A stretch of DNA of 64,000 nt, taken from the NCBI GenBank assembly GCA_030068145.1, contig JAPJBO010000239.1, forward strand, positions 203,378 to 267,377, read 5' to 3'. Below, piece by piece: positions 28,925 to 46,558 of the stretch. The translations under genes and the position numbers were made by a program. Under the pieces are notes generated by a model that had not been told where the DNA came from, searched no databases, and saw only the letters and a program-made list of their open reading frames with translations. Source of the DNA: Diplonema papillatum (lineage: Eukaryota > Euglenozoa > Diplonemea > Diplonemida > Diplonemidae). How positions within the stretch are numbered: the stretch's first letter is position 1; each line of letters starts with the position of its first letter.

Positions 28925-29229
28925 GGAAATTTTCTCGTGGAAACTACTGGCGGAAATTTCTTTCGTGGGAAGGGAAACTGGTGGTGGAAATTTTTCTCAC
29001 GACAGGAAACTGATGGAAATTACTCGAGGCGAAAGCTACTGGCGGAAATTTCTCTCGTGGCGGAAACCTGATGGAAATGTGTTCTCATGGAAACTGCTGG
29101 CGGAAATTTCTTTTGTGGAATACTGTTGGGGGAAATTTTTTCGTGGCAGAAACCTGATGGAAATTTTCTCGTGGAAACTACTGGTGGAAATATCTTTGTG
29201 GAATACTGTTGGTGGAAATTTTCTCATGG
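28925..29229. repeat. Degenerate GGAAATTTTCTCGTGG array
   Basis: About ten variants of CTGGTGGAAATTTTCTCGTGG with AAACTACTGG or CAGAAACCTGATGG linkers. The same sequence resumes in the same orientation at 32404-32440, so the 29238-32402 element appears to have inserted into this array. Confidence 0.85.
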
Positions 29230-29237
29230 CAGAAAAC

Positions 29238-29414
29238 GGGTGATTCCCCATTATGCTATTAAAGTTTGCTAATTTCCCCATTATGCTATTAAAGTGGTGC
29301 TAATTTCCCCATTATGCTATTAAAGCTGCTAATTTCCCCATTATGCTATTAAAGCGGTGCTAATTTCCCCATTATGCTATTAAAGTTTGCTAATTTCCCC
29401 ATTATGCCATTAAA
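29238..29414 (+). repeat. Left inverted end array of the foldback-like element
   Basis: Six tandem units of about 30 bp, each with CCCCATTATGCTATTAAAG. The last unit is slightly changed (GCCATTAAAAC). Confidence 0.9.
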
Positions 29415-29613
29415 ACATTTTTTTGGGTTTTGGCGGGTTTCCACCGGTTTTCCACAGTTTCCCGCGGCCTCTACCACGAACATGTCCAACCTTTTCGGGA
29501 ATGGCTTCCCGCAAACCAGGGGTGCCCGGGGTTCCGGGGGTATTTTGGGTTTTAGGCGATGCGGGTCCCGGGGTTTTTCCCGGTTTCGCCAGTGCAAAAT
29601 GGGCGCTGCAAGA

Positions 29614-29825
29614 CTCCAAGGGGGGGGGTGTACAAGCCCCCGCGGTGGTAATTCGGGCTAATTTGGGCCTGATTTTGTGTCTGCTGGACGCCAAGGCTCC
29701 AAGGGGGGGGGGGTGTACAAGCCCCCGCGGTGGTAATTCGGGCTAATTTGGGCCTGATTTTGTGTCTGCTGGACGCCAAGGCTCCAAGGGGGGGGGGGGT
29801 GTACAAGCCCCCGCCAAGGTTCCAA
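29614..29825. repeat. 84-bp tandem repeat, about 2.5 copies
   Basis: Units start TCCAAGGGGGGGG, continue TGTACAAGCCCCCGCGGTGG and end CTGCTGGACGCCAAGGC. The third copy is cut short. The G run lengthens slightly from copy to copy. Confidence 0.85.
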
Positions 29826-30426
29826 GGGCGCGCAAGAATGCGCCTATTCGGAAGAGGGTGCAGTGCGTCTCCGCTTTTCCGGTTGCTCGTCATCACTCTC
29901 GTCCTCGTCCAAAACTTGTGAGAAGGTCACTCTCGCTGTGCAGTGGAATAAAACGAGCAGATTGTTTTGTTTGGGTACGCAGCCCACCGCTTACTCAAGT
30001 CCGCGAACACTGTCGCGCACAACTGCCGGCGCCAGCGTTGAATACCCTGCTTTGTGAGTTCGTCCATGTTGTTCTTCCCGAGGATGCTGCACAGAGCTTG
30101 TTGAGCCAATCCACCTACCCCCCGCTGAAGCTGAGTTTAGTTGACCACGCCTGGGTTGCCCCGATTATAGCGGCTTGCTCGACTATGTCTCTATTACACC
30201 GGACACAGACAGGCTATATGCAATGCAAATAACCCGGCAGGCATACAACCCCCTCGTCCACAACGCGGCGGGCTGAGCCCAATAACGAGGCGTTTCTGTT
30301 TCTTCGATTGGACGATTGCGTCCGCAACAACAAAGTTGAGTGGATACAATATTTTTTTGGCTAAAAAACATTGGGGGAAAAGGGTAATACCAAGGAGAGT
30401 GAAACCGGGAAAAATAGCTATTTTTT

Positions 30427-30554
30427 ACCGGTAAATAAGGGGCCTTTTTGTCCCGAGGGCAAGTTTTTTTCACGAGACGAGCCCGAGGGCGAAGCCCGAG
30501 GGCGAGTCGAGTGAAAAAAACTTGCCCGAGGGACAAAAAGGCCCCTTGACCGGT
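30427..30554. repeat. 128-bp near-perfect palindrome
   Basis: Arms start ACCGGT, continue AGGGGCCTTTTTGTCCCGAGG and GCAAGTTTTTTTCAC, and return in reverse order to GACCGGT. The centre is a CCCGAGGGCG repeat. The arms are long enough to extrude a cruciform. Confidence 0.85.
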
Positions 30555-30563
30555 ACAACGTAA

Positions 30564-30622
30564 TTTTTTTTACCGGCTGGATTTTTTTTGCCTGCCGCTG
30601 AACAGCTGCAATGAGGCCCAGG
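30564..30622 (+). repeat. Left inner terminal inverted repeat
   Basis: It begins with a T run and TACCGGCTGG, then CTGCCGCTGAACAGCTGCAA, and ends AATGAGGCCCAGG. It matches the reverse complement of 31271-31330 with one substitution and a 2-base indel. Confidence 0.85.
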
Positions 30623-30667
30623 AGCAAAAGGAAACGGAATGAGCATTCCTCACCACAAGACAACATG

Positions 30668-31165
30668 CTAAAAGGGTTGTGCTAAGAAAGGGCGGTGTTC
30701 ATGAACACCTCGTAGGTCATGTACTCCGGTCGATGGGCTCGAAACGTAGGTCATGACTTCGTCGATGGTGAACGCCTTTGCTTTTTTGGTCGTGTAGTTG
30801 CGGCTCTTCACCTTCAGGCGTGCTGCCAGCTTTGGGTACTTGTCTTTCAGAGTGACGCCGAATTCTGAGGTGTGCTTTGCATTCAGCATGCTGTAGATTG
30901 ACCACATGGTTGAAGGCTTGAAGCTGCGGTCGTCTACCAGGTGCTTGAAGAAGGTTGCGTACTGTGCCTCCGTCGGCTGCTTCTTGGATGGCTTTCCCGA
31001 GAGGGGCTTTGGGTACTTGCAGTGAACTTGAATGTAGTCTATGAAGTCCCTCCACACCAACGTGTAACGTTGCCTGGACTTCTCCGGCAGAGCGCTGTCG
31101 CTGCTTTCGCCTTCAGAGCTTTCGGGACTGGAGTCGCTGACTCCTTCTTTCTTCACCTTCGGCAT
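30668..31165 (-). CDS. Truncated tyrosine-recombinase-like protein (N-terminal domain only)
   Basis: 165 residues on the minus strand. Residues 1-25 are Ser/Glu-rich and basic (MPKVKKEG start). Residues of about 30-145 resemble the helical core-binding (SAM-like) domain of phage-type integrases and Crypton recombinases: a conserved Trp in VWRDFIDYIQ, FKPSTMWSIYSMLNAKH, and the basic ARLKVKSRNYTTKKAKAFT block before the hinge. The catalytic domain with its Arg, His-x-x-Arg and Tyr is missing; the frame ends soon after the hinge. It probably derives from a deletion and would bind DNA at most. Assignment is by pattern only. The gene is enclosed by the inner inverted repeats. Confidence 0.55.
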   Translation of the reverse strand: MPKVKKEGVSDSSPESSEGESSDSALPEKSRQRYTLVWRDFIDYIQVHCKYPKPLSGKPSKKQPTEAQYATFFKHLVDDRSFKPSTMWSIYSMLNAKHTSEFGVTLKDKYPKLAARLKVKSRNYTTKKAKAFTIDEVMTYVSSPSTGVHDLRGVHEHRPFLAQPF

Positions 31166-31201
31166 TTTGTGGTCTTGTTTCCTTTAATCCTGTAGGTGTT
31201 G

Positions 31202-31275
31202 CTATGAAAATGTCTCCAGGGACAAAAAAAACTTTTTGTCCCTGGAGGGACAAAAAGCTCCCTTATTGTCCCTGG
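31202..31275. repeat. GGGACAAAAA palindrome cluster
   Basis: CCAGGGACAAAA followed by TTTTTGTCCCTGG forms a 13-bp inverted repeat; further GGGACAAAAA and TTGTCCCTGGG words follow. The same GGGACAAAAAGG word occurs in the palindrome at 30.5 kb. Confidence 0.7.
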
Positions 31276-31330
31276 GCCTCATTGTAGCTGTTCAGCGGCA
31301 GGGACAAAAAAAATCCAGCCGGTAAAAAAA
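31271..31330 (-). repeat. Right inner terminal inverted repeat
   Basis: The reverse complement of 30564-30622, beginning CCTGGGCCTCATTGTAGCTG and ending CCAGCCGGTAAAAAAA. Confidence 0.85.
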
Positions 31331-31564
31331 GTTTTTTTGGTTACGAAGCCCCCAGCAACGAAACCGGGAAAAAAAGTTTTTTCCAGGAAAAGCGGGTACC
31401 GGGTCCCGACCCCTGCCGCAAACCCTTTTTTTTTTTTTTTTTTTTCCCTTGTTACGTATGTGAGGATACGGCTAATAGCTTGCTGGTCATGAAATCTTCA
31501 GTACACTCCTTCAGGAGTCCTTGGTTGGTCCAAGACATGCAGCATGGCCGACGGGAACACGTCC

Positions 31565-31602
31565 AAACCCGAAGTGCCCGCCCTGGCACTTCGGGTTTGA
31601 CC
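31565..31602. repeat. Perfect 15-bp-stem hairpin
   Basis: CAAACCCGAAGTGCC, a six-base loop, then GGCACTTCGGGTTTG. It lies inside the foldback-like element and outside any reading frame I trust. Confidence 0.85.
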
Positions 31603-32177
31603 CGGCGCCCATCATGGCCACCGCAGCGGCATTCCACTGTATCTGAATCCACAACTGTGACAAGACAAAACTGGGCTCATGAAATGATGAAAAGCCTCAT
31701 CAAATTTCCAAATGAGTACCACAAAGGTCCACGCTGCAGTGCAGCCTACAGTATGGAAGCGTTGCTTTGCTACAGTGCAGCTGAGACAGTGAGAGCTTAG
31801 CTTCGGTGCAGCTGTCTTTAGTCTGCTCCAACTTAGTCTGGTGTCAGATCACCAGCTGAGCTGTCAGTGCGAACCCTGCTGACCCCTTTTGGTGAACATG
31901 CTGATTGTTTCCCGCGGACCAGCACAGTGCCAAGACGGAGTCACAGTGTGACTTGCAAAGTTAACTGTCCGGTGGAAATAAGCCGTTTTCTCGAAACAAT
32001 CTACTGACAGTAGGCTAAGTAGCGCCGTCGAATCGATTTCATCAAACGACTGCTCGCGTTAGGCACGGTTAGAAAGTGCAGTGTCATTATCTTCCTCGAA
32101 AATGGACAAAACTACTCACAAAAAGTCTTGACCAGACTACCTGTGCTGTACTACGACCGCCAGTAGCCCAGTCGCAG

Positions 32178-32402
32178 AATGGGGAAATTAGCAAACTTTA
32201 ATGGCATAATGGGGAAATTAGCGCCACTTTAATAGCATAATGGGGAAATTAGCACCACTTTAATAGCATAATGGGGAAATTATCAACTTTAATAGCATAA
32301 TGGGGAAATTAGGAAAAAAACCCCCCAGAATGGGGAAATTAGCAGCTTTAATAGCATAATGGGGAAATTAGCAAACTTTAATAGCATAATGGGGAATCAC
32401 CC
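32178..32402 (-). repeat. Right inverted end array of the foldback-like element
   Basis: About seven units of AATGGGGAAATTAGC plus CTTTAATAGCAT, the inverse of the left array. One unit is interrupted by a short AGGAAAAAAACCCCCC insertion near 32312. Confidence 0.9.
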
Positions 32403-33470
32403 ACAGAAAACTGATGAAATTTTCTCACGGCAGTGCACCAGAGGCGGCACATGCACACAGCTACACGAGGGGTGGGGGTGACTCACCGCTGATTCCCCAA
32501 AACCGAGCGTAGTTTTTCGTCCCAAGGCATCCCTGCTGCCCAAGTGTTGGAAAAAAATATTTGACCTCACACCGGGTTTTTGGCTGACACCGGGTTTTCC
32601 GCTCCAACCCCCAAACTTTTAAAGACCCCTGACCCACAGAGACAGTGCTCCCACTAAGGAAAAACCCGGAGGAATTCCTCAAAAAAAAAAGGTGCTGAAA
32701 AAGGCCCCGGAGGAATTCCTCCGGAGGAATTCCTCCGGGGGGACCTGAGGAATTCCTCCAGCCTGGTACCAGTCCACCACAAAACTGTGAAGAGGGAAGG
32801 ACAGTGTCTATCCTCATGCTTATCAGGAGTCTTTGTGCTCTCAAATACTCTTTGGGCAGACCGCTGCGTGTGACACCATGCCAGTTTTCGGGATCTTCGT
32901 ACTGCCCCTGACAAGGCCTCCAATTTTTTTCCGCGCCTGCGGCGCAGGTATTCTTGACTATGTAGGACTATCTCATCATTTGTCTCGTTTCGTCCAAGTG
33001 TCCACTGGCAAAGGATTCATATCAAATTTATAAGGTGTGCTGATGACTGGTAGGAGTGCAGTGATATCCCGGCATGAGATCTCGCTTGTGGGGATTTCCA
33101 ATGCTCAGCACCTTCGGCTGACACTGCCAACCGTACCCAGCTGTGCACTGCACGAACAGCATGAAATTGCTGGTGTTTGCTTCCTCCGGCATGTCGGGGG
33201 GTTGGCGGTGGGATCCAATCTCAGAAGCTGGAGTCAAAGCTACAGTGAAAAAAGTGGGTGTGGTGTGGATTCACGCGCATTTTGGTTGTGGTGGAGCAAC
33301 CCATCTCTAGCTCCAGCTCACCCTGGGAGCACTGACAGACACTGCTAAAAAAAGCGCGACACTGCGACAGCGCCAAAAAAGAAAAAAAAACTTTTCCTGA
33401 TTTAGGCTTCCTCCGGCATTTCGGAGGTAAGCGGGAGCACTGCACAGAGATGATAAAAAGAAAAAAGAAA
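32403..33470. other. Intergenic region with GAATTC palindromes
   Basis: No supported gene. The stretch 32665-32760 holds several copies of the palindrome GGAGGAATTCCTCC. Confidence 0.5.
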
Positions 33471-38990: not shown

Positions 38991-39025
38991 CAACAGGCAG
39001 CCCTTCCAAAGACCAGCCACAGTCA

Positions 39026-40162
39026 TACCAATACCAATACCAATACCAATACCAATACCAATACCAATACCAATACCAATACCAATACCAATACCAATAC
39101 CAATACCAATACCAATACCAATACCAATACCAATACCAATACCAATACCAATACCAATACCAATACCAATACCAATACCAATACCAATACCAATACCAAT
39201 ACCAATACCAATACCAATACCAATACCAATACCAATACCAATACCAATACCAATACCAATACCAATACCAATACCAATACCAATACCAATACCAATACCA
39301 ATACCAATACCAATACCAATACCAATACCAATACCAATACCAATACCAATACCAATACCAATACCAATACCAATACCAATACCAATACCAATACCAATAC
39401 CAATACCAATACCAATACCAATACCAATACCAATACCAATACCAATACCAATACCAATACCAATACCAATACCAATACCAATACCAATACCAATACCAAT
39501 ACCAATACCAATACCAATACCAATACCAATACCAATACCAATACCAATACCAATACCAATACCAATACCAATACCAATACCAATACCAATACCAATACCA
39601 ATACCAATACCAATACCAATACCAATACCAATACCAATACCAATACCAATACCAATACCAATACCAATACCAATACCAATACCAATACCAATACCAATAC
39701 CAATACCAATACCAATACCAATACCAATACCAATACCAATACCAATACCAATACCAATACCAATACCAATACCAATACCAATACCAATACCAATACCAAT
39801 ACCAATACCAATACCAATACCAATACCAATACCAATACCAATACCAATACCAATACCAATACCAATACCAATACCAATACCAATACCAATACCAATACCA
39901 ATACCAATACCAATACCAATACCAATACCAATACCAATACCAATACCAATACCAATACCAATACCAATACCAATACCAATACCAATACCAATACCAATAC
40001 CAATACCAATACCAATACCAATACCAATACCAATACCAATACCAATACCAATACCAATACCAATACCAATACCAATACCAATACCAATAAATACCAATAC
40101 CAATACCAATACCAATACCAATACCAATACCAATACCAATACCAATACCAATACCAGTACCA
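39026..40162. repeat. 1.1-kb CCAATA hexamer array
   Basis: About 190 nearly perfect copies of ATACCA, broken once by an AAT insertion near 40088 and decaying to GTACCA and ATGCCA at the 3' end. The six-base period keeps all frames open and yields Tyr-Gln, Ile-Pro or Gly-Ile repeats. It may be untranslated leader, intron or a translated Ile-Pro tract fused to SF3A2. Confidence 0.95.
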
Positions 40163-40882
40163 ATGCCAATGCCAATGCCCCAGCCACCCGATACCCCAAT
40201 ACCAACACCTCAATACCAAAACCGTGCATCAATCAATCAGCAGCACATGGACCCATGCATAACCACACAGCAAACCGATCTCGAGAAGGACAAATGGTTC
40301 AGCAAAAACGCGCTGGGGCACATAGAATGCAGGCTGTGCCTGACGACCCATAAAACCGAGGGCAACTACATGGCACATGCCCAAGGCAGGCGGCACCAGA
40401 CGAATCTCCTCCGGAAAGAAGAAGAGAAGGCGAAAAACGTCCAGCCCGCCTCTGTGGTCACGAAGAAAGTTGCCGTGGCCAAAACGCCTAAGATCGGTCG
40501 GCCCGGGTATCAAGTGCAGCGAAAGCGTGACCCAACTTCAGGCCAGCGCATCCTCAACTTCCAAGTATACTACGCTGACATCCGCGAGGGAGTAACTCCC
40601 CGCCACAGGATCATGTCTGCTTTTGAACAGAAAAAGGAACCCCCTGACAACCGCTACCAGTACCTTCTCTTCGCCGCTGAGCCGTATGAGACCATTGCTT
40701 TCAAGATCCCCGGTGACGAAATTGAACAGGGTGACTCGTTCTTTGCGACATGGGACAAGGAGAAGCAGGTCTTCACGCTCGAGTTTGCGTACCGCTTGAA
40801 GAAGAACACACAACAAAGCAACCAGCACCCATCATCAGCGCCCTCTTTTGAAGCGCCGCCGCCACCACCTCCTGGAATGTAA
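40163..40882 (+). CDS. SF3A2: Splicing factor 3A subunit 2 (SF3A2/PRP11/SAP62)
   Basis: A component of the U2 snRNP SF3a complex, acting in the nucleus in branch-site recognition. A matrin/U1-type C2H2 zinc finger is clear (ECRLCLTTHKTEGNYMAHA, then GRRHQTNL). The family signature KIGRPGYQVQRKRD follows, then the conserved C-terminal block (TPRHRIMSAFEQKKEPPD and YLLFAAEPYETIAFK). It ends in a short proline run, as in many relatives. Length from the ATG at 40163 is 239 residues, near yeast Prp11. The usual N-terminal GKTGSGG element is absent, so the true start may lie in an upstream exon joined at an acceptor near 40272 (ACCACACAG). A start at ATG 40248 is also possible. Confidence 0.93.
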   Translation: MPMPMPQPPDTPIPTPQYQNRASINQQHMDPCITTQQTDLEKDKWFSKNALGHIECRLCLTTHKTEGNYMAHAQGRRHQTNLLRKEEEKAKNVQPASVVTKKVAVAKTPKIGRPGYQVQRKRDPTSGQRILNFQVYYADIREGVTPRHRIMSAFEQKKEPPDNRYQYLLFAAEPYETIAFKIPGDEIEQGDSFFATWDKEKQVFTLEFAYRLKKNTQQSNQHPSSAPSFEAPPPPPPGM

Positions 40883-40927: not shown

Positions 40928-42039
40928 CTCGTCTTGGCCATTCCTCCAGAGGCCGTTGCCTGCCATGTTTTGTCAAGGTCGGGAACTTGTGGAGTTGTTG
41001 GGGCTCGGTCCTCGTGCGATTCGGAGCTACACCCCTGTTTCGCTCCGATGAGTGTGCTCACCGAGAGAGAAGCTTCGGAAAGATTTCGGACATCCTTCGA
41101 TCCTTCCATTGCCGCCTCTCTTTTTTGGGCTGGCCGTCTCCTTCTGTGGCTCGTAACTCCTGAAAGCAAAGAGCGGCCCAGAAACAGATGAGTAGTCTAT
41201 TGTTCGGGATCGAGCTTTGTAAAGGGTCGGCCATTTTCACAAAGTGTAGCATCTGGCAGTTTCGGCTGTGATACCGTACCACCTTCTCAGTCAGAAGTCA
41301 ACAAAAAAGATCAGATGGAGTGATCCCCAGCCTTTTGCTCGCTTTACATGACACTACAGCATCACCGGTGCGATGCTTTACAGTGCCATTCTCAGCCACA
41401 TGCTTTTGCGAGGACGACACAAGTACAGTGGTGCTCAGGTGCTCTCCGTTCCATTGCACATTTCTGATACATTTGCGAATGTCCTTGTACTCAGCTCTGT
41501 TTGATGCCGAAATCCAGGTCTATACTCAGCTGAGCTAAGATCTGTGCTTGTTCAAAGATGCTCAAATACTACACAATGATTCACCAGGGACCGCTGGAAT
41601 CAGACGCCTGCAACCAGGGAGCAAGCTTCTTCTCTGCCCGAGGAAGTCGGAGCATGTTGCCGAGCTTAGCAGGAGGCACCCAGACAGACCACGAAGGTGC
41701 ACGACAACGACCGCTCAGCATTGTTCCAGCAACCTAGTTTCCAATGACCGTATCTCACCCGGCAACATGTTCTTGCTTAGTTAAGAAAAAGATGCAATGC
41801 CGCAATGCCTGCTGTAGGGCTATAGGACCAGGATCGAAGGTTGAGTAACGCACAAGCAAGCACATGACACACCCCCTTTTAATACCCTGTGCGGTATTAC
41901 GACTCGGTCTACATTCGACACATCGGTTAAGTCTCAACCTTCCACTACCACAATCCCGGGCTAAACACCAAGGAGTCGGGCCAGAAAGAAGAAGAAAAGC
42001 GAAAAGAGAAGATACAAAAAACCAGCAGCAGAGAAAATC
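40928..42039. other. Spacer between SF3A2 and metacaspase 1
   Basis: No supported gene. Presumably 3' end of SF3A2 and promoter of the metacaspase. Confidence 0.4.
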
Positions 42040-43455
42040 ATGAAGAAGCTTCTCCAAAAGGCAGAAGCGGCCCTTGGTGTGGATCTCGATGGCGATGGCC
42101 ACGTCGGCAAGCCGAAGCAGGGAGGTGGCCGCGGGGGGTACTCACAGCCGGCTCATGGAAACCAACAACAGCAAGCATACAGTCAGCAGCCGCAGGTCAA
42201 CCCTCAAGTCTTCGGAGCGCCTGGAAAGGGGCACGTGAAGGCGTTGTTGATCGGCATCAACTACTACGGTCAACGAGGACAGTTATCCGGCTGTGTCAAC
42301 GATGTGCGAACAATGCAAGGACTGATCCGGAAACAAGGCCTGGCCGGTGGGTCATTCCAAGAGGTAGTCCTCGTCGATGACAAGAATTTTCCCGGTGCGA
42401 AGTTTCCAACCAAGCAGGAAATTCTCACGGCACTGAAGTGGCTCGCAGCCAACAATCGCCCAGGCGACACCCTCTTCTTCCATTTCTCCGGCCACGGAGG
42501 CCAACAGAAGGACCTCGACGGTGATGAAGGAGACGGCTTCGACGAGACGATAATCCCTGTCGACTTCCAAAGGGCAGGACAAATTACAGACGATGTTATC
42601 TTCAATACACTTGTGGCACCCCTTGCAGCAGGAGTTAGACTAACAGCAGTCATGGACTGCTGCCACTCCGGAACTGCGATGGACCTTCCGTTTATGTTCA
42701 AAGCCTCAGACCAGGCCATGAAGAGTGCCTTGGACGATCCCGCAAAGTTGGCAATGTCACTGATGAACACCGGCTCACGCAAGAAAATTGTTTCGCAACT
42801 TCTCTCTGAGTTCATGGGTGGAGGCGGGGGCAAGGCCAAACAGGACGCGCAGAAAATGTGCAACGGGGATGTCGTTATGTTTTCGGGCTGCGCCGACTCA
42901 CAGACATCTGCAGACGTTGCCAACGTTCAGCAATTCGGCCTTCCACCAGGCTCAGGCCCTGGAGGTGCAGGAGGGGCCTGCACCAATGCAATGGCTGTTG
43001 TCCTGCTGCGCGAAACACGCGGTCTTCGCTTTGCAGATTTGCTCGACAAAATGCGTCACGAGCTGAAGCGCAAAGGGTACAAGCAAGTTCCACAGGTTTC
43101 ATCATCGAAACCGATCGATCTGTCCACTCAATTCAGCTTCTTTGGTGGTCTCTCCGGCGCACGTGTGATGCCGATCCAGCCTGGTCAGGCTGGGTGGGAT
43201 ATTGGGCATGGGCCGGCACCAGTCCAAAACATGTACCACGGCAACCAGCCAATGGCAAACCATCAAGCCTTCCCTGCTCAAAGCTACCCCCCACAGCAGC
43301 AGGCTGGTGGCTGGGGAGGACCACCACAAGGCCCACCCCCAGGTGGCAACGCTTATGCCAACCACAGCGCACCATCCAACCCTTATGGTCCCCCAGGAGG
43401 CGCACCGTCCCCGTTTGGTGCACCACCAGGTGGCTACGGCAACGATGCTGTGTGA
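42040..43455 (+). CDS. Type I metacaspase, tandem copy 1
   Basis: A cysteine protease cleaving after Arg or Lys, involved in stress and cell-death responses in plants and protists. 471 residues, no intron. The p20 domain (about residues 65-245) has the catalytic His152 in HFSGHGGQ and Cys208 in DCCHSG. The p10-like part (about 280-380) has DVVMFSGCADSQTSADV and GACTNAMAVVLLR. No long linker separates them, so it is type I rather than type II. The N-terminus is short: MKKLLQKAEAALG followed by VDLDGDGHVG, which looks like half of an EF-hand loop. The C-terminal 90 residues are Pro/Gln/Gly-rich. The plant type I zinc finger is absent. The start is chosen because copy 2 begins with the same peptide. 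Confidence 0.95.
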   Translation: MKKLLQKAEAALGVDLDGDGHVGKPKQGGGRGGYSQPAHGNQQQQAYSQQPQVNPQVFGAPGKGHVKALLIGINYYGQRGQLSGCVNDVRTMQGLIRKQGLAGGSFQEVVLVDDKNFPGAKFPTKQEILTALKWLAANNRPGDTLFFHFSGHGGQQKDLDGDEGDGFDETIIPVDFQRAGQITDDVIFNTLVAPLAAGVRLTAVMDCCHSGTAMDLPFMFKASDQAMKSALDDPAKLAMSLMNTGSRKKIVSQLLSEFMGGGGGKAKQDAQKMCNGDVVMFSGCADSQTSADVANVQQFGLPPGSGPGGAGGACTNAMAVVLLRETRGLRFADLLDKMRHELKRKGYKQVPQVSSSKPIDLSTQFSFFGGLSGARVMPIQPGQAGWDIGHGPAPVQNMYHGNQPMANHQAFPAQSYPPQQQAGGWGGPPQGPPPGGNAYANHSAPSNPYGPPGGAPSPFGAPPGGYGNDAV

Positions 43456-45079
43456 AGAGGGATTGTTTCTCGGCGTTTTTCTTTTCAGGAGCTGAACTGG
43501 CTGCAAGCATGATCGGAAAAGCCGAAGGTCATTCATGTTTGACAGATGCATTGTTATAACGAGCATTCTTTGGAAGAAGTTCCTTTTTCACAGGCGGACC
43601 ACTACCAACAATGTGGCCTCCTATTCTTACCAGGAGGCTGCACCTCAAAACAAAAAGAACCCCTTCTTAACCCCGAAATTGTATCCCAAAAGGTCTACAT
43701 GCCGTGATGCCACCGCAGCCACATTGTAGTTCTTCCCACCAGCGGTTGGGCCTGTCCCCCTTCTGCTTCTCATTGCCGGCACCATCGTACAGGCGGAGCT
43801 CAAGGACCATCCTTGCCGAGGTCTCAACAAGCTCTGCAACGTTGCTCCAAACGACTCAGACAACATTTTTTCCATCCAGGTTGCCAGCTGTCTGCGCTGG
43901 GCATCTCACAACGAGGAGTATCTACTTTTGCTCGTGTTGACCCCCAAAACCCCCACTTGAGATGAACCTGAAGAGTAAGCCGAACCGACTACAAATTTCT
44001 TTTGTGATACCCACCCTTGAACTTCCTGCGTGGGTGAAATGCTCAAGGTACTGACCGTTGTGTACTCTCGTGCCAGCAAAAGCCAAGATGACATCTGGGC
44101 TGCTGCAAGGTGATTGCGTTCAGGTAGCTTGAGACACTTGTTTCCGACCAGCCAAACAGAAGGCCAGACAAGTTGTTTTGTATGTAGTGTGTGTGAGAGA
44201 GAGTTGAGTGTGAGTGTGAGCGAGTGATAGAAGCGGTGGTCATCCGAGCATTGCTAGCCTGCCAACTTTGCCCTTCTCCTCTCCCTTTTGTCCTAGCCAC
44301 CAACACCATTGCAGTACTTACCAAGAAGGCTTTATGTGACAAAGATTCGCAAGTTGCCATCCACATTTCCTGTTGTGTCGACATCAACCCACTCCAACAT
44401 CTATAGGTTCAGTTCACACACAATCCCTCAGCAATTCCCCGACAGTTATCTGTAGTGAGCTTTTTGCAAATGATGCCAAAGAACCAACCGTTAGGGCGGA
44501 AGTATGTCACACAATGGGATTAAAACCATCCTGCCTCTGCACCGGCCTGTTGAGCCGCTCTCCACCACACTTTTGTTTTCGGATACATGAGTGAACAGTC
44601 TCTCTATCTCTTCTTCGTCCAGTTTTTGGGGACCTTCGTGCACTTGGGGGTTTCCTCTTTGTTTCGTTGCCGTAACTATGTTCACCACACTGGGTTGAAT
44701 CAACTCAAAGAAGTAGCAGCAAGGGAGCAATTCAAAAAAAGCACCGGTAAGAAACGAGTGTTTCTGATAGGTAACTGTTTGTATTTCAGTCTCCGTTTTT
44801 TGGCTCCTTCGGATGATTACATTGAGCTGAAGACAGGAATCTTGCAAGTCGCCTGCTTAAAGCGACTTTAAGAGTGACCACCACACACAGAGTGAGATCT
44901 GCCAGTTTAGTACTCTTGAGTTCAGAGAGCTGTCCCATCACACACCAACTGCAATCTCCCAGGCACACACAACATGCCTACGTGTAGCATGCCAGTCTGA
45001 ATGTTTGACAAAGTATCACTCTGTCAACCGACTACACGAAAACAACAGGTGCCTGTGCCTCAGAAAACAAAAAATCACC
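43456..45079. other. Spacer between the two metacaspases
   Basis: 1.6 kb with no supported gene; no remnant of a third metacaspase seen. Confidence 0.5.
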
Positions 45080-46558
45080 ATGAAAAAGCTACTTCAAAAA
45101 GCAGAGTCGTTTCTTGGCGTGGATCTCGATGGTGATAGACAAATTGGGAAGCCGCAACCAGGTGGATACACTGGTGGCACTTCTTATCAAAACGGTCATC
45201 AGCAAGAACTGTACAGAGGCCCACAAGTTGACCCGTCTTTATTTGGTGCCCCAGGTAAGGGACATGTGAAAGCTTTGTTCATCGGAATCAACTACTATGG
45301 CCAGAGAGGTCAGTTGTCAGGCTGCGTCAACGATGTTCGTACAATGCAGGGACTCATTCGGAAAATGGGCTTGGCTTCTGGCTCGTTTCAAGAGGTGGTG
45401 CTTGTGGATGATAGGAAGTTTCCAGGGGCAAAGTACCCAACTAAGCGAGAAATACGCACAGCATTGAGATGGCTGGCTTCGAACAATAGACCAGGAGACA
45501 CTCTGTTCTTCCATTACTCTGGGCATGGTGGACAAGTGAAGGATTTGGATGGTGATGAAGCTGATGGATATGACGAAACCATTATTCCGGTTGATTTTCG
45601 CACTGCTGGGCAGATCACAGATGATACAATATTCAGCACACTTGTTGCCCCTCTCCCAGCTGGAGTTCGGCTGACAGCAGTTATGGACTGCTGCCACTCA
45701 GGAACCGCTATGGATCTGCCCTTCATGTTCAAAGCTTCAGAAGAGAACATGAAAAATGCATTCGACAGCCCTGCAAAGCTAGCCATGTCTTTGTTGGATG
45801 GTCGCAAACGCAATCAACTTGTTATGCAAGTGCTATCTGGCCTTATGGGAGGTGGTGGCGGGCTGTTCGGTGGTGGACAGTCCAAAGAGGATAGGAAGAA
45901 GTACTGCAATGCTGATGTAGTCATGTTCTCGGGCTGCTCTGACTCACAGACTTCAGCAGATGTCGCAAATGTCCAAAGTTTTGGCCTACCACCAGGATCT
46001 GGTCCGGGAGGTGCTGGAGGGGCCTGCACAAATGCCATGGCTGCTGTGTTGCTACGTGAACCGCGAGGGTTGAGATTCGTTGACCTGCTCGACAAAATGC
46101 GTCATGAGCTCAAACGCAAGGGTTACAGACAAGTTCCGCAGTTATCATCTTCTAAACCAATCGATCTTTCAACACCATTCAGCTTCTTCGGGTCCCTGCA
46201 GACTGCTCAGGTTCAACCTCTGGCACCAGGCCAAGCAGGTTGGGGCTATGGGCATGGACCAGCACCCACACCGAATCTGTATCATGGCAATTATCCACAG
46301 CAAAACGTACCACCAAGACCTCCACAGAACTACCCGTCTCAGAACAATTCATGGCAGCCTCTGCCTCAGTCGTTCAACAATGCAACCCCAACCAACCCCT
46401 ATTCGAACCAAAGTTCAAACATACCACCACAGGGGTTTCGTGTGACCAATCAGCCACCTAGCCCATACCGCACCCCGCCCGCGGCTCCTCTAACTGCAGG
46501 GGGTCTTCCCTCACCTTATGCTCAATACTCAAGCCAGGCCCTCGATGATGCTGTCTGA
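45080..46558 (+). CDS. Type I metacaspase, tandem copy 2
   Basis: 492 residues from the ATG that matches the start of copy 1 (MKKLLQKAE); an in-frame ATG 75 bases upstream lacks such support. Catalytic His149 in HYSGHGGQ and Cys205 in DCCHSG are intact. The p10-like block DVVMFSGCSDSQTSADV and GACTNAMAAVLLR is nearly identical to copy 1. The EF-hand-like peptide has changed to VDLDGDRQIG. A short Gly-rich insert (GGGGGLFGGGQ) precedes the p10-like part, and the Pro/Gln/Asn-rich tail differs most. Third codon positions are clearly richer in A and T than in copy 1. Both copies look functional; their divergence is mainly synonymous and in the tail. Confidence 0.94.
   Translation: MKKLLQKAESFLGVDLDGDRQIGKPQPGGYTGGTSYQNGHQQELYRGPQVDPSLFGAPGKGHVKALFIGINYYGQRGQLSGCVNDVRTMQGLIRKMGLASGSFQEVVLVDDRKFPGAKYPTKREIRTALRWLASNNRPGDTLFFHYSGHGGQVKDLDGDEADGYDETIIPVDFRTAGQITDDTIFSTLVAPLPAGVRLTAVMDCCHSGTAMDLPFMFKASEENMKNAFDSPAKLAMSLLDGRKRNQLVMQVLSGLMGGGGGLFGGGQSKEDRKKYCNADVVMFSGCSDSQTSADVANVQSFGLPPGSGPGGAGGACTNAMAAVLLREPRGLRFVDLLDKMRHELKRKGYRQVPQLSSSKPIDLSTPFSFFGSLQTAQVQPLAPGQAGWGYGHGPAPTPNLYHGNYPQQNVPPRPPQNYPSQNNSWQPLPQSFNNATPTNPYSNQSSNIPPQGFRVTNQPPSPYRTPPAAPLTAGGLPSPYAQYSSQALDDAV

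What the first reader, a model, noticed from the sequence alone, without database searches (positions are those of the whole stretch)
29230..32411. Foldback-like transposon with a reconstructable empty site and 8-bp target duplication
Inverted ends are made of 29-31-bp subrepeats, the outer 12 bases are exact inverse complements, and CAGAAAAC flanks both sides. The flanking GGAAATTTTCTC array becomes continuous if the element and one 8-mer are removed. This is strong evidence of transposition, yet no transposase for these ends is present, so the mobilising family is unknown (8 bp is compatible with hAT- or P-like enzymes, among others).
Basis: partly seen in the sequence, partly recalled or inferred. 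Interest (0 to 1): 0.75.

Follow-up and report, generated by a model that had tools for sequence, protein, structure and literature searches.

The report
Foldback Mutator-type transposon with nested insertions
This is one damaged copy of a jumping-gene family of the well-known Mutator group, with long repeat-built ends, that landed in a simple repeat array and was later hit by other mobile elements; it is a good example of a known kind rather than a new one.

Summary
Window 29238-32402 is a foldback-like DNA transposon whose arms are built of 29-31-bp units, inserted in a GGAAATTTTCTC minisatellite. The target duplication is 9 bp, not 8: GCAGAAAAC/ACAGAAAAC, one mismatch. In the genome (271 Mb, unnamed eukaryote) the end motifs form 43 converging pairs. 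Both flanks were held for 31: 25 have a perfect 9-bp duplication, 3 match 8 of 9, one has 8 bp, one 7 bp, one none. The mobilising family is not unknown. Among paired elements, C1567 (9/9 duplication) carries a Pfam MULE transposase fragment and C359 a pseudogene of it (93% DNA identity over 633 bp). An unpaired member, C206, shares one end and interior with the short copies and carries a 558-aa MULE frame. So this is a non-autonomous Foldback/Mutator element, structurally close to Tm1 of root-knot nematodes. hAT or P is not supported for the outer element. The middle of the window copy is a later nest: a hAT-like element (29517-31415, TIR CAGGGGT, duplication CCGCAAAC), itself holding a third insertion with a possible recombinase-like frame. 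Unusually, both ends of the window copy carry the same terminus type, probably through gene conversion. New member of a known kind.

The parts
28985..29228 (.). host GGAAATTTTCTC minisatellite (target) on the left of the insertion; it resumes for about one unit at 32412-32433
   Evidence: tandem repeats; joined flanks align to the array, score 58; 0 of 1000 controls reach it, highest 56
29229..29237 (.). left copy of the 9-bp target-site duplication, GCAGAAAAC
   Evidence: 8 of 9 identical to 32403-32411
29238..29414 (+). left arm: terminus GGGTGATTCCCC plus six 29-31-bp units
29415..29516 (+). left interior of the outer element (102 bp); its first 60 bp or so are shared with the MULE-carrying copy C1567
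   Evidence: C1567 matches element positions 1-239, 96%
29509..29516 (.). left 8-bp target duplication CCGCAAAC of the nested hAT-like element
   Evidence: uninterrupted CCGCAAACCCTTG in 19 of 22 other copies
29517..31415 (.). nested hAT-like element, TIR CAGGGGT...ACCCCTG; other genomic copies begin at this same base
   Evidence: 17 of 82 rows begin exactly at this base; copy C1845 has 8/8 duplication GTCAGGCG and ends CAGGGGT/ACCCCTG
30415..31328 (-). third-level insertion inside the hAT-like element (boundaries approximate); the C1845 copy lacks it
30668..31183 (-). 171-aa open frame, weakly like an N-terminal tyrosine-recombinase (SAM-like) domain; many relatives in the genome
   Evidence: Phage_int_SAM_4 E=0.073, 13.9 bits, cut-off 27; 156 matches
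31416..31423 (.). right 8-bp duplication CCGCAAAC of the nested hAT-like element
31426..31445 (.). run of 20 T, absent from the 19 other copies whose junction was shown
31446..32173 (+). right interior of the outer element, shared with the short copies and in part with the MULE-carrying C206
   Evidence: short copy C82 against C206: 97.9% over 529 bp
32174..32402 (-). right arm: six recognisable units and terminus GGGGAATCACCC, which is of the left (TG) type here instead of the usual GGGGAATGTCCC
32403..32411 (.). right copy of the 9-bp target-site duplication, ACAGAAAAC

Best explanation
A non-autonomous Foldback-like member of the Mutator (MULE) superfamily. Shown: it ends in GGGTGA/GGGACA-type termini followed by arms of 29-31-bp units, it belongs to a multi-copy family flanked by 9-bp duplications, and family members with the same ends carry MULE transposase sequence. 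Inferred: a MULE transposase supplied in trans binds the repeated arm units and termini, cuts the element out or copies it, and inserts it at a 9-bp staggered cut. The short copies arose by internal deletion of a coding element like C206. Unit number changes by slippage or unequal exchange. In the window copy the right terminus was overwritten by the left type through gene conversion, because both duplication copies are still there. Later a hAT-like element, and inside it a third element, landed in its middle.
For: Duplications: of 43 pairs, 31 had both flanks held; 25 perfect 9 bp, 3 with 8 of 9 (the window is one), 1 of 8 bp, 1 of 7 bp, 1 none. Of 930 mismatched pairings, 2 reach 9 (as expected from C1725 and C1796, the same locus on two contigs), none 8, 1 reaches 7. 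Ends: 40 of 43 pairs are one TG-type plus one AC-type end. Transposase: C1567 (2023 bp, both ends, duplication GTTGGGAAG 9/9) holds a 369-aa frame, Pfam MULE E=1.4e-11. C359 (both ends, 8-bp duplication) holds a MULE pseudogene 93% identical in DNA over 633 bp. C206 has the TG end, a 558-aa MULE frame (E=8.7e-9) and part of the right interior of the short copies at 97.9%. One of the 150 Pfam MULE hits scored (of 245 candidates) lies in the 43 paired elements against about 0.07 expected (my arithmetic: about 121 kb of 271 Mb); C359 was found only by protein search. Mobility: C365 and C962 are identical at 735 aligned interior positions, gaps ignored, with different duplications. Nest.
Against: No copy with both ends and a whole transposase was found. 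C1567 is truncated, C359 is a pseudogene, and C206 shows no right end in the 8.2 kb read. The C206 and C1567 transposases are only 32% identical, so which lineage moved the short copies is unsettled. C1567 has no match to the short copies' right interior, only ends and about 60 bp of left interior. C403 has no duplication, C112 has 7 bp and C359 has 8 bp. 64 of 150 end sites had no partner within 30 kb, and 12 of 43 pairs lacked flanks. Nine of the longer paired elements were read only in part or not at all. Catalytic residues were not aligned, and no sequence comparison with any named MULE was made.
Confidence: 0.9

Rival explanations
1. A hAT- or P-superfamily foldback element (as Galileo is of the P superfamily), with an 8-bp duplication.
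For: The exact flanking repeat in the window copy is 8 bp; C359 has 8 bp. Foldback arms have arisen in other superfamilies: PMC3169594, discussion part 1, names Galileo with a P transposase.
Against: 25 of 31 testable pairs have exactly 9 bp and 3 more have 8 of 9. Transposase sequence between these ends is MULE. The hAT-like ends (CAGGGG, 8 bp) belong to the nested element instead. No search with hAT or P transposase models was made.
Confidence: 0.03
2. The ends are MULE-like, but the MULE frames in C1567, C359 and C206 are chance nested insertions or captured pieces, and the real mobiliser is another, unseen 9-bp-duplication enzyme.
For: No intact complete element was found; two MULE lineages (32% identical) occur with these ends; another member holds unrelated nested DNA, a retroelement (C1796).
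Against: C1567 and C359 are separate insertions carrying the same MULE segment in the same order beside the TG end. In C206 the MULE frame lies about 150 bp from the interior shared with the short copies. The 9-bp duplication fits MULEs.
Confidence: 0.07
3. Two unrelated satellite arrays that happen to face each other, with a chance flanking 8-mer.
For: The arms are tandem arrays, and foldback units can found satellites (Tetris, PMC4079207, passages). 6 of 100 listed units were not assigned to an end motif.
Against: 43 converging pairs with fixed end motifs, duplications far above mismatched pairings, 94 of 100 listed units lie within such ends, and the empty site is restored.
Confidence: 0.005

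Closest known systems
Tm1, Mutator/Foldback family of Meloidogyne root-knot nematodes (PMC3169594; passages and part 1 of 2 of the discussion read)
   Same: Composite inverted arms of a variable number of short tandem units; different terminal motifs at the two ends; mostly 9-bp duplications (8-10 bp in 45 of 53 complete elements there); many short non-coding copies and very few with a MULE transposase; one copy there also has the same terminal motif at both ends.
   Different: Units are 13-15 bp there and 29-31 bp here; terminal motifs differ. The same-motif copy there lacks a duplication, while the window copy keeps it (8 of 9). Here no complete coding copy was found. No sequence comparison with Tm1 was made.
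Tetris, foldback of Drosophila virilis (PMC4079207; passages read)
   Same: Foldback arms with internal tandem repeats, 8-10-bp duplications, non-autonomous copies that its authors suggest belong to Mutator.
   Different: Repeats are about 220 bp and seeded satellites there; 94 of 100 listed units here lie within the arms. MULE sequence was found with these ends here, not there.
FARE of Arabidopsis and Drosophila FB (named from PMC3169594; the FARE paper is not held)
   Same: Foldback arms; FARE is said there to contain a MULE-domain transposase.
   Different: No sequence comparison was made.
hAT superfamily, for the nested element 29517-31415 only (defining features recalled)
   Same: 8-bp duplication and CAGGG-type ends in 2 of 2 copies read.
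   Different: Transposase not looked for.

Membership tests
Mutator (MULE) superfamily | Mostly 9-bp target duplication (commonly 8-10 bp; 9 bp as the usual MULE size is stated in PMC3169594) | tested here: met
   25 of 31 perfect 9 bp, 3 with 8 of 9, one 8 bp, one 7 bp, one none
Mutator (MULE) superfamily | MULE transposase encoded between the same ends (in the family, not in the window copy) | tested here: met
   C1567 (Pfam MULE E=1.4e-11) and C359 pseudogene, 2 of 43 paired elements, not all of them read; C206 unpaired. No intact complete copy found.
Mutator (MULE) superfamily | Catalytic DDE residues and enzyme activity | not tested
   Pfam matches only; residues were looked at by eye, not aligned
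Foldback-like elements | Long inverted arms built of tandem units, variable in number | tested here: met
   left arm 2-14 units and right arm 4-10 units in 24 copies counted
Tm1 | Sequence homology of transposase or unit to Tm1 | not tested
   no Tm1 sequence was fetched
P superfamily or hAT (outer element) | 8-bp duplication as the rule (recalled) | tested here: not met
   1 of 31 has exactly 8 bp
hAT (nested element 29517-31415) | 8-bp duplication and CAGGG-type inverted ends (recalled) | tested here: met
   CCGCAAAC in the window, GTCAGGCG in C1845; 2 of 2 read
hAT (nested element 29517-31415) | hAT transposase in the family | not tested
   no search made

The most novel reading that the evidence does not exclude
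Ends and transposase are modular in this family. The same foldback ends are found with two MULE transposases only 32% identical, so the repeat-built arms may be recognised by, or handed between, diverged enzymes, keeping the short copies mobile (some interiors still identical) while complete coding copies vanish.
Probability: 0.15. Interest if true: 0.45.

Novelty: new member of a known kind. Interest (0 to 1): 0.25.

Why it matters
It answers the open point of the finding: the mobilising family is Mutator-like, not hAT or P. It also adds a well-sampled foldback MULE family, with 31 testable duplications, three loci carrying MULE sequence and copies with identical interiors. The window copy itself is a neat order-of-events record: minisatellite, then foldback MULE, then hAT-like element, then a third insertion.

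Tried and rejected
An 8-bp hAT or P reading of the outer element: rejected. A satellite-only reading: rejected.

The 5-9-kb members C117, C145, C1199 and C1796/C1725 were fetched as candidate complete autonomous copies. A search of them with the C1567 and C206 MULE proteins found nothing in any of these, nor in C403. For C1199 two pieces had been joined with one piece in the wrong orientation (the file was reused), so only the pieces, not the joint, were properly searched; the genome listings of MULE matches show none there either. C1796 turned out to hold a nested retroelement. C1088 has one end near an 832-aa MULE frame, but no second end in the 6.5 kb read, so it is not counted. C403 has no duplication.

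Rows left out of counts: 12 of 43 pairs (flanks not held), the 16 of 116 sites that were not listed; C424 and C1567 from the 24 copies compared (C424 has a long insertion in the interior, C1567 no matching interior).

Naming the organism failed. Cymbomonas was considered; the assembly sizes in passages of PMC10675990 do not fit. A search for a 271-Mb assembly gave a listing with nothing usable. Rfam gave no hit above the gathering scores in the window. A literature search for an algal case gave 0 papers, but its terms were narrow and it shows nothing; a broader one listed Tm1 and Tetris among others. No claim is made that this family is absent from print.
Full report
What is there. Window 29238-32402 is bounded by GGGTGATTCCCC and its inverse complement, and the two ends match for 57 of 57 bases. 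The arms are 29-31-bp units. The unit core occurs 12 times in the window, all in the arms, with none in 100 shuffles. The flanking repeat is best read as 9 bp with one mismatch (GCAGAAAAC/ACAGAAAAC). Removing the element and one copy restores the GGAAATTTTCTC array: score 58, against a mean of 34.8 and a maximum of 56 in 1000 controls with random right halves.

Family. The window lies in a 271-Mb assembly of 2910 contigs; frames for SF3a2 and caspase-domain proteins mark it as eukaryotic. Searches with the whole element and with its right part found many relatives, mostly without the middle. The end GGGTGATTCCCCATTATGC with up to two mismatches has 116 sites, of which 100 were listed, and GGGACATTCCCCATTATGC with up to one mismatch has 75. 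I used 73 TG-type sites and 77 AC-type sites; two of the latter were GGGTCA-type sites added. They give 43 converging pairs under 30 kb: 40 TG/AC, 2 AC/AC (one of them with a GGGTCA end) and one TG/TG, the window copy. 64 of the 150 sites had no partner; mutated or lost partners and contig ends are likely reasons, but were not examined. The pairs were made by coordinates, so a few long ones may be false.

Duplications. Both flanks were held for 31 of the 43 pairs. Without selecting on the duplication, 25 have a perfect 9-bp repeat, 3 match 8 of 9 (C995, C117 and the window), C359 has 8 bp, C112 has 7 bp and C403 has none. C1725 and C1796 are the same locus on two contigs (99.96% over 6851 bp with flanks), so 24 of 30 independent sites are perfect. 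Of 930 mismatched pairings, 2 reach 9 (as that shared locus must give), none 8 and 1 reaches 7.

Are the arms free satellites? The unit with up to three mismatches has 555 sites. Of the 100 listed, 94 lie within 400 bp inside an end motif and in register. Of the other 6, C16 (2) and C223 (3) lie in elements whose other end is recognised, so their own terminus is probably mutated; C65 (1) is unexplained. The unlisted 455 were not placed. Unit numbers vary between copies: 2-14 left and 4-10 right in 24 copies.

Transposase. Pfam MULE has 150 matches in the genome (150 of 245 candidates scored). One lies in a paired element, C1567: 2023 bp, TG and AC ends, duplication GTTGGGAAG on both sides. Its 369-aa frame scores E=1.4e-11 for MULE and 1.4e-7 for Transposase_mut. 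By chance about 0.07 would be expected (my arithmetic). A protein search with it found C359 as next best, 63-73% identical in three pieces with stops. C359 lies in a second paired element, 93% identical in DNA over 633 bp to C1567 and in the same order beside the TG end. A DNA search with the C1567 interior gave 10 rows: itself, C359 and 8 fragments of 44-333 bases. C206 has the TG end, a 558-aa MULE frame (E=8.7e-9) and, about 150 bp upstream of that frame, part of the right interior of the short copies (97.9% over 529 bp against C82). No right end was found in the 8.2 kb read. C206 and C1567 are 32% identical. The short copies share part of their left interior with C1567 and of their right interior with C206, so deletion from a parent of this kind is likely, but which lineage it was is open.

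Activity. Among 22 interiors (of 24 copies), the median pairwise identity is 98.4% with gaps ignored; with gaps counted, BLAST identities to the window copy run from 87.8 to 98.2%. C365 and C962 are identical at 735 positions, gaps ignored, with different duplications. The family moved recently in evolutionary terms, although no complete coding copy was found.

The window copy. In 19 of 22 other copies the junction reads CCGCAAACCCTTG where the window has an insertion; in 3 the probes did not match. That insertion runs from CAGGGGT (29517) to ACCCCTG (31415) between two CCGCAAAC. In the genome, 17 of 82 rows begin at exactly base 29517. One copy, C1845, has the same ends between two GTCAGGCG, 8 of 8. 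By ends and duplication it is hAT-like; no transposase was sought. C1845 lacks a further insertion at about 30415-31328, which carries a 171-aa frame with 156 matches in the genome and a sub-threshold match to a phage-integrase N-terminal domain (E=0.073). So hAT features do occur here, but in the guest, not in the host element. A run of 20 T at 31426-31445 is absent from the 19 copies shown.

The right terminus. Of the 23 other copies printed, 22 end in GGGGAATGTCCC and one (C39, second copy) in GGGGAATGACCC; the window ends in GGGGAATCACCC, with the next inner unit as in relatives such as C223. Since both duplication copies remain, gene conversion from a TG end is likelier than a crossover between two elements. 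A Tm1 copy with the same motif at both ends lacks the duplication (PMC3169594).

Comparison. Tm1 (PMC3169594: passages; discussion part 1 of 2) matches in most structural respects. Tetris (PMC4079207, passages) is another foldback that its authors assign to Mutator. Membership in MULE is supported by the 9-bp duplication and by MULE sequence with the same ends; catalytic residues were not tested. Filed as a new member of a known kind.

Noticed in passing
L068 3998-6751 (-) and 3468-4415 (-), inside the member C1796:21590-28250: A retroelement copy sits just inside the AC terminus. Its 918-aa frame has reverse-transcriptase-like motifs by eye (Pfam RVT_1 only E=0.02, below cut-off), then a UCH (ubiquitin protease) start (E=0.092, below cut-off), and an overlapping 316-aa frame has UCH at E=1.4e-11. 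Relatives are abundant (50 scored of 874 candidates), many with single frames of about 1450-1525 aa. A reverse transcriptase joined to a deubiquitinase domain deserves its own look; one literature search was too broad to judge novelty.
   Followed up: partly
window 30415-31328 (approximate): Small multi-copy element with a 171-aa frame weakly like a tyrosine-recombinase N-terminal domain; relatives have frames up to 442 aa, possibly Crypton-like (recalled, not tested).
   Followed up: partly
window 29517-31415: hAT-like nested family with 85-bp GC-rich internal tandem repeats; many genomic matches (82 rows).
   Followed up: partly
window 41965-43455 and 44861-46558: Two neighbouring frames with caspase-domain (Peptidase_C14) matches, E=1.2e-37 and 9.6e-39; probably metacaspase-like genes.
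   Followed up: no
window 40091-40882: Frame matching splicing factor SF3a subunit 2, E=1.1e-33, overlapping the end of a 1.15-kb ATACCA array at 39025-40176.
   Followed up: no
C1725:3600-10480 and C1796:21500-28350: Same locus on two contigs (99.96% with flanks): the assembly holds at least one duplicate, probably haplotigs, so copy counts may be inflated.
   Followed up: partly
L070 480-1031 (+), inside the paired member C403: A 184-aa frame with a weak UCH-like start (E=0.041, below cut-off); no match to the C1796 frames at E 1e-6.
   Followed up: partly
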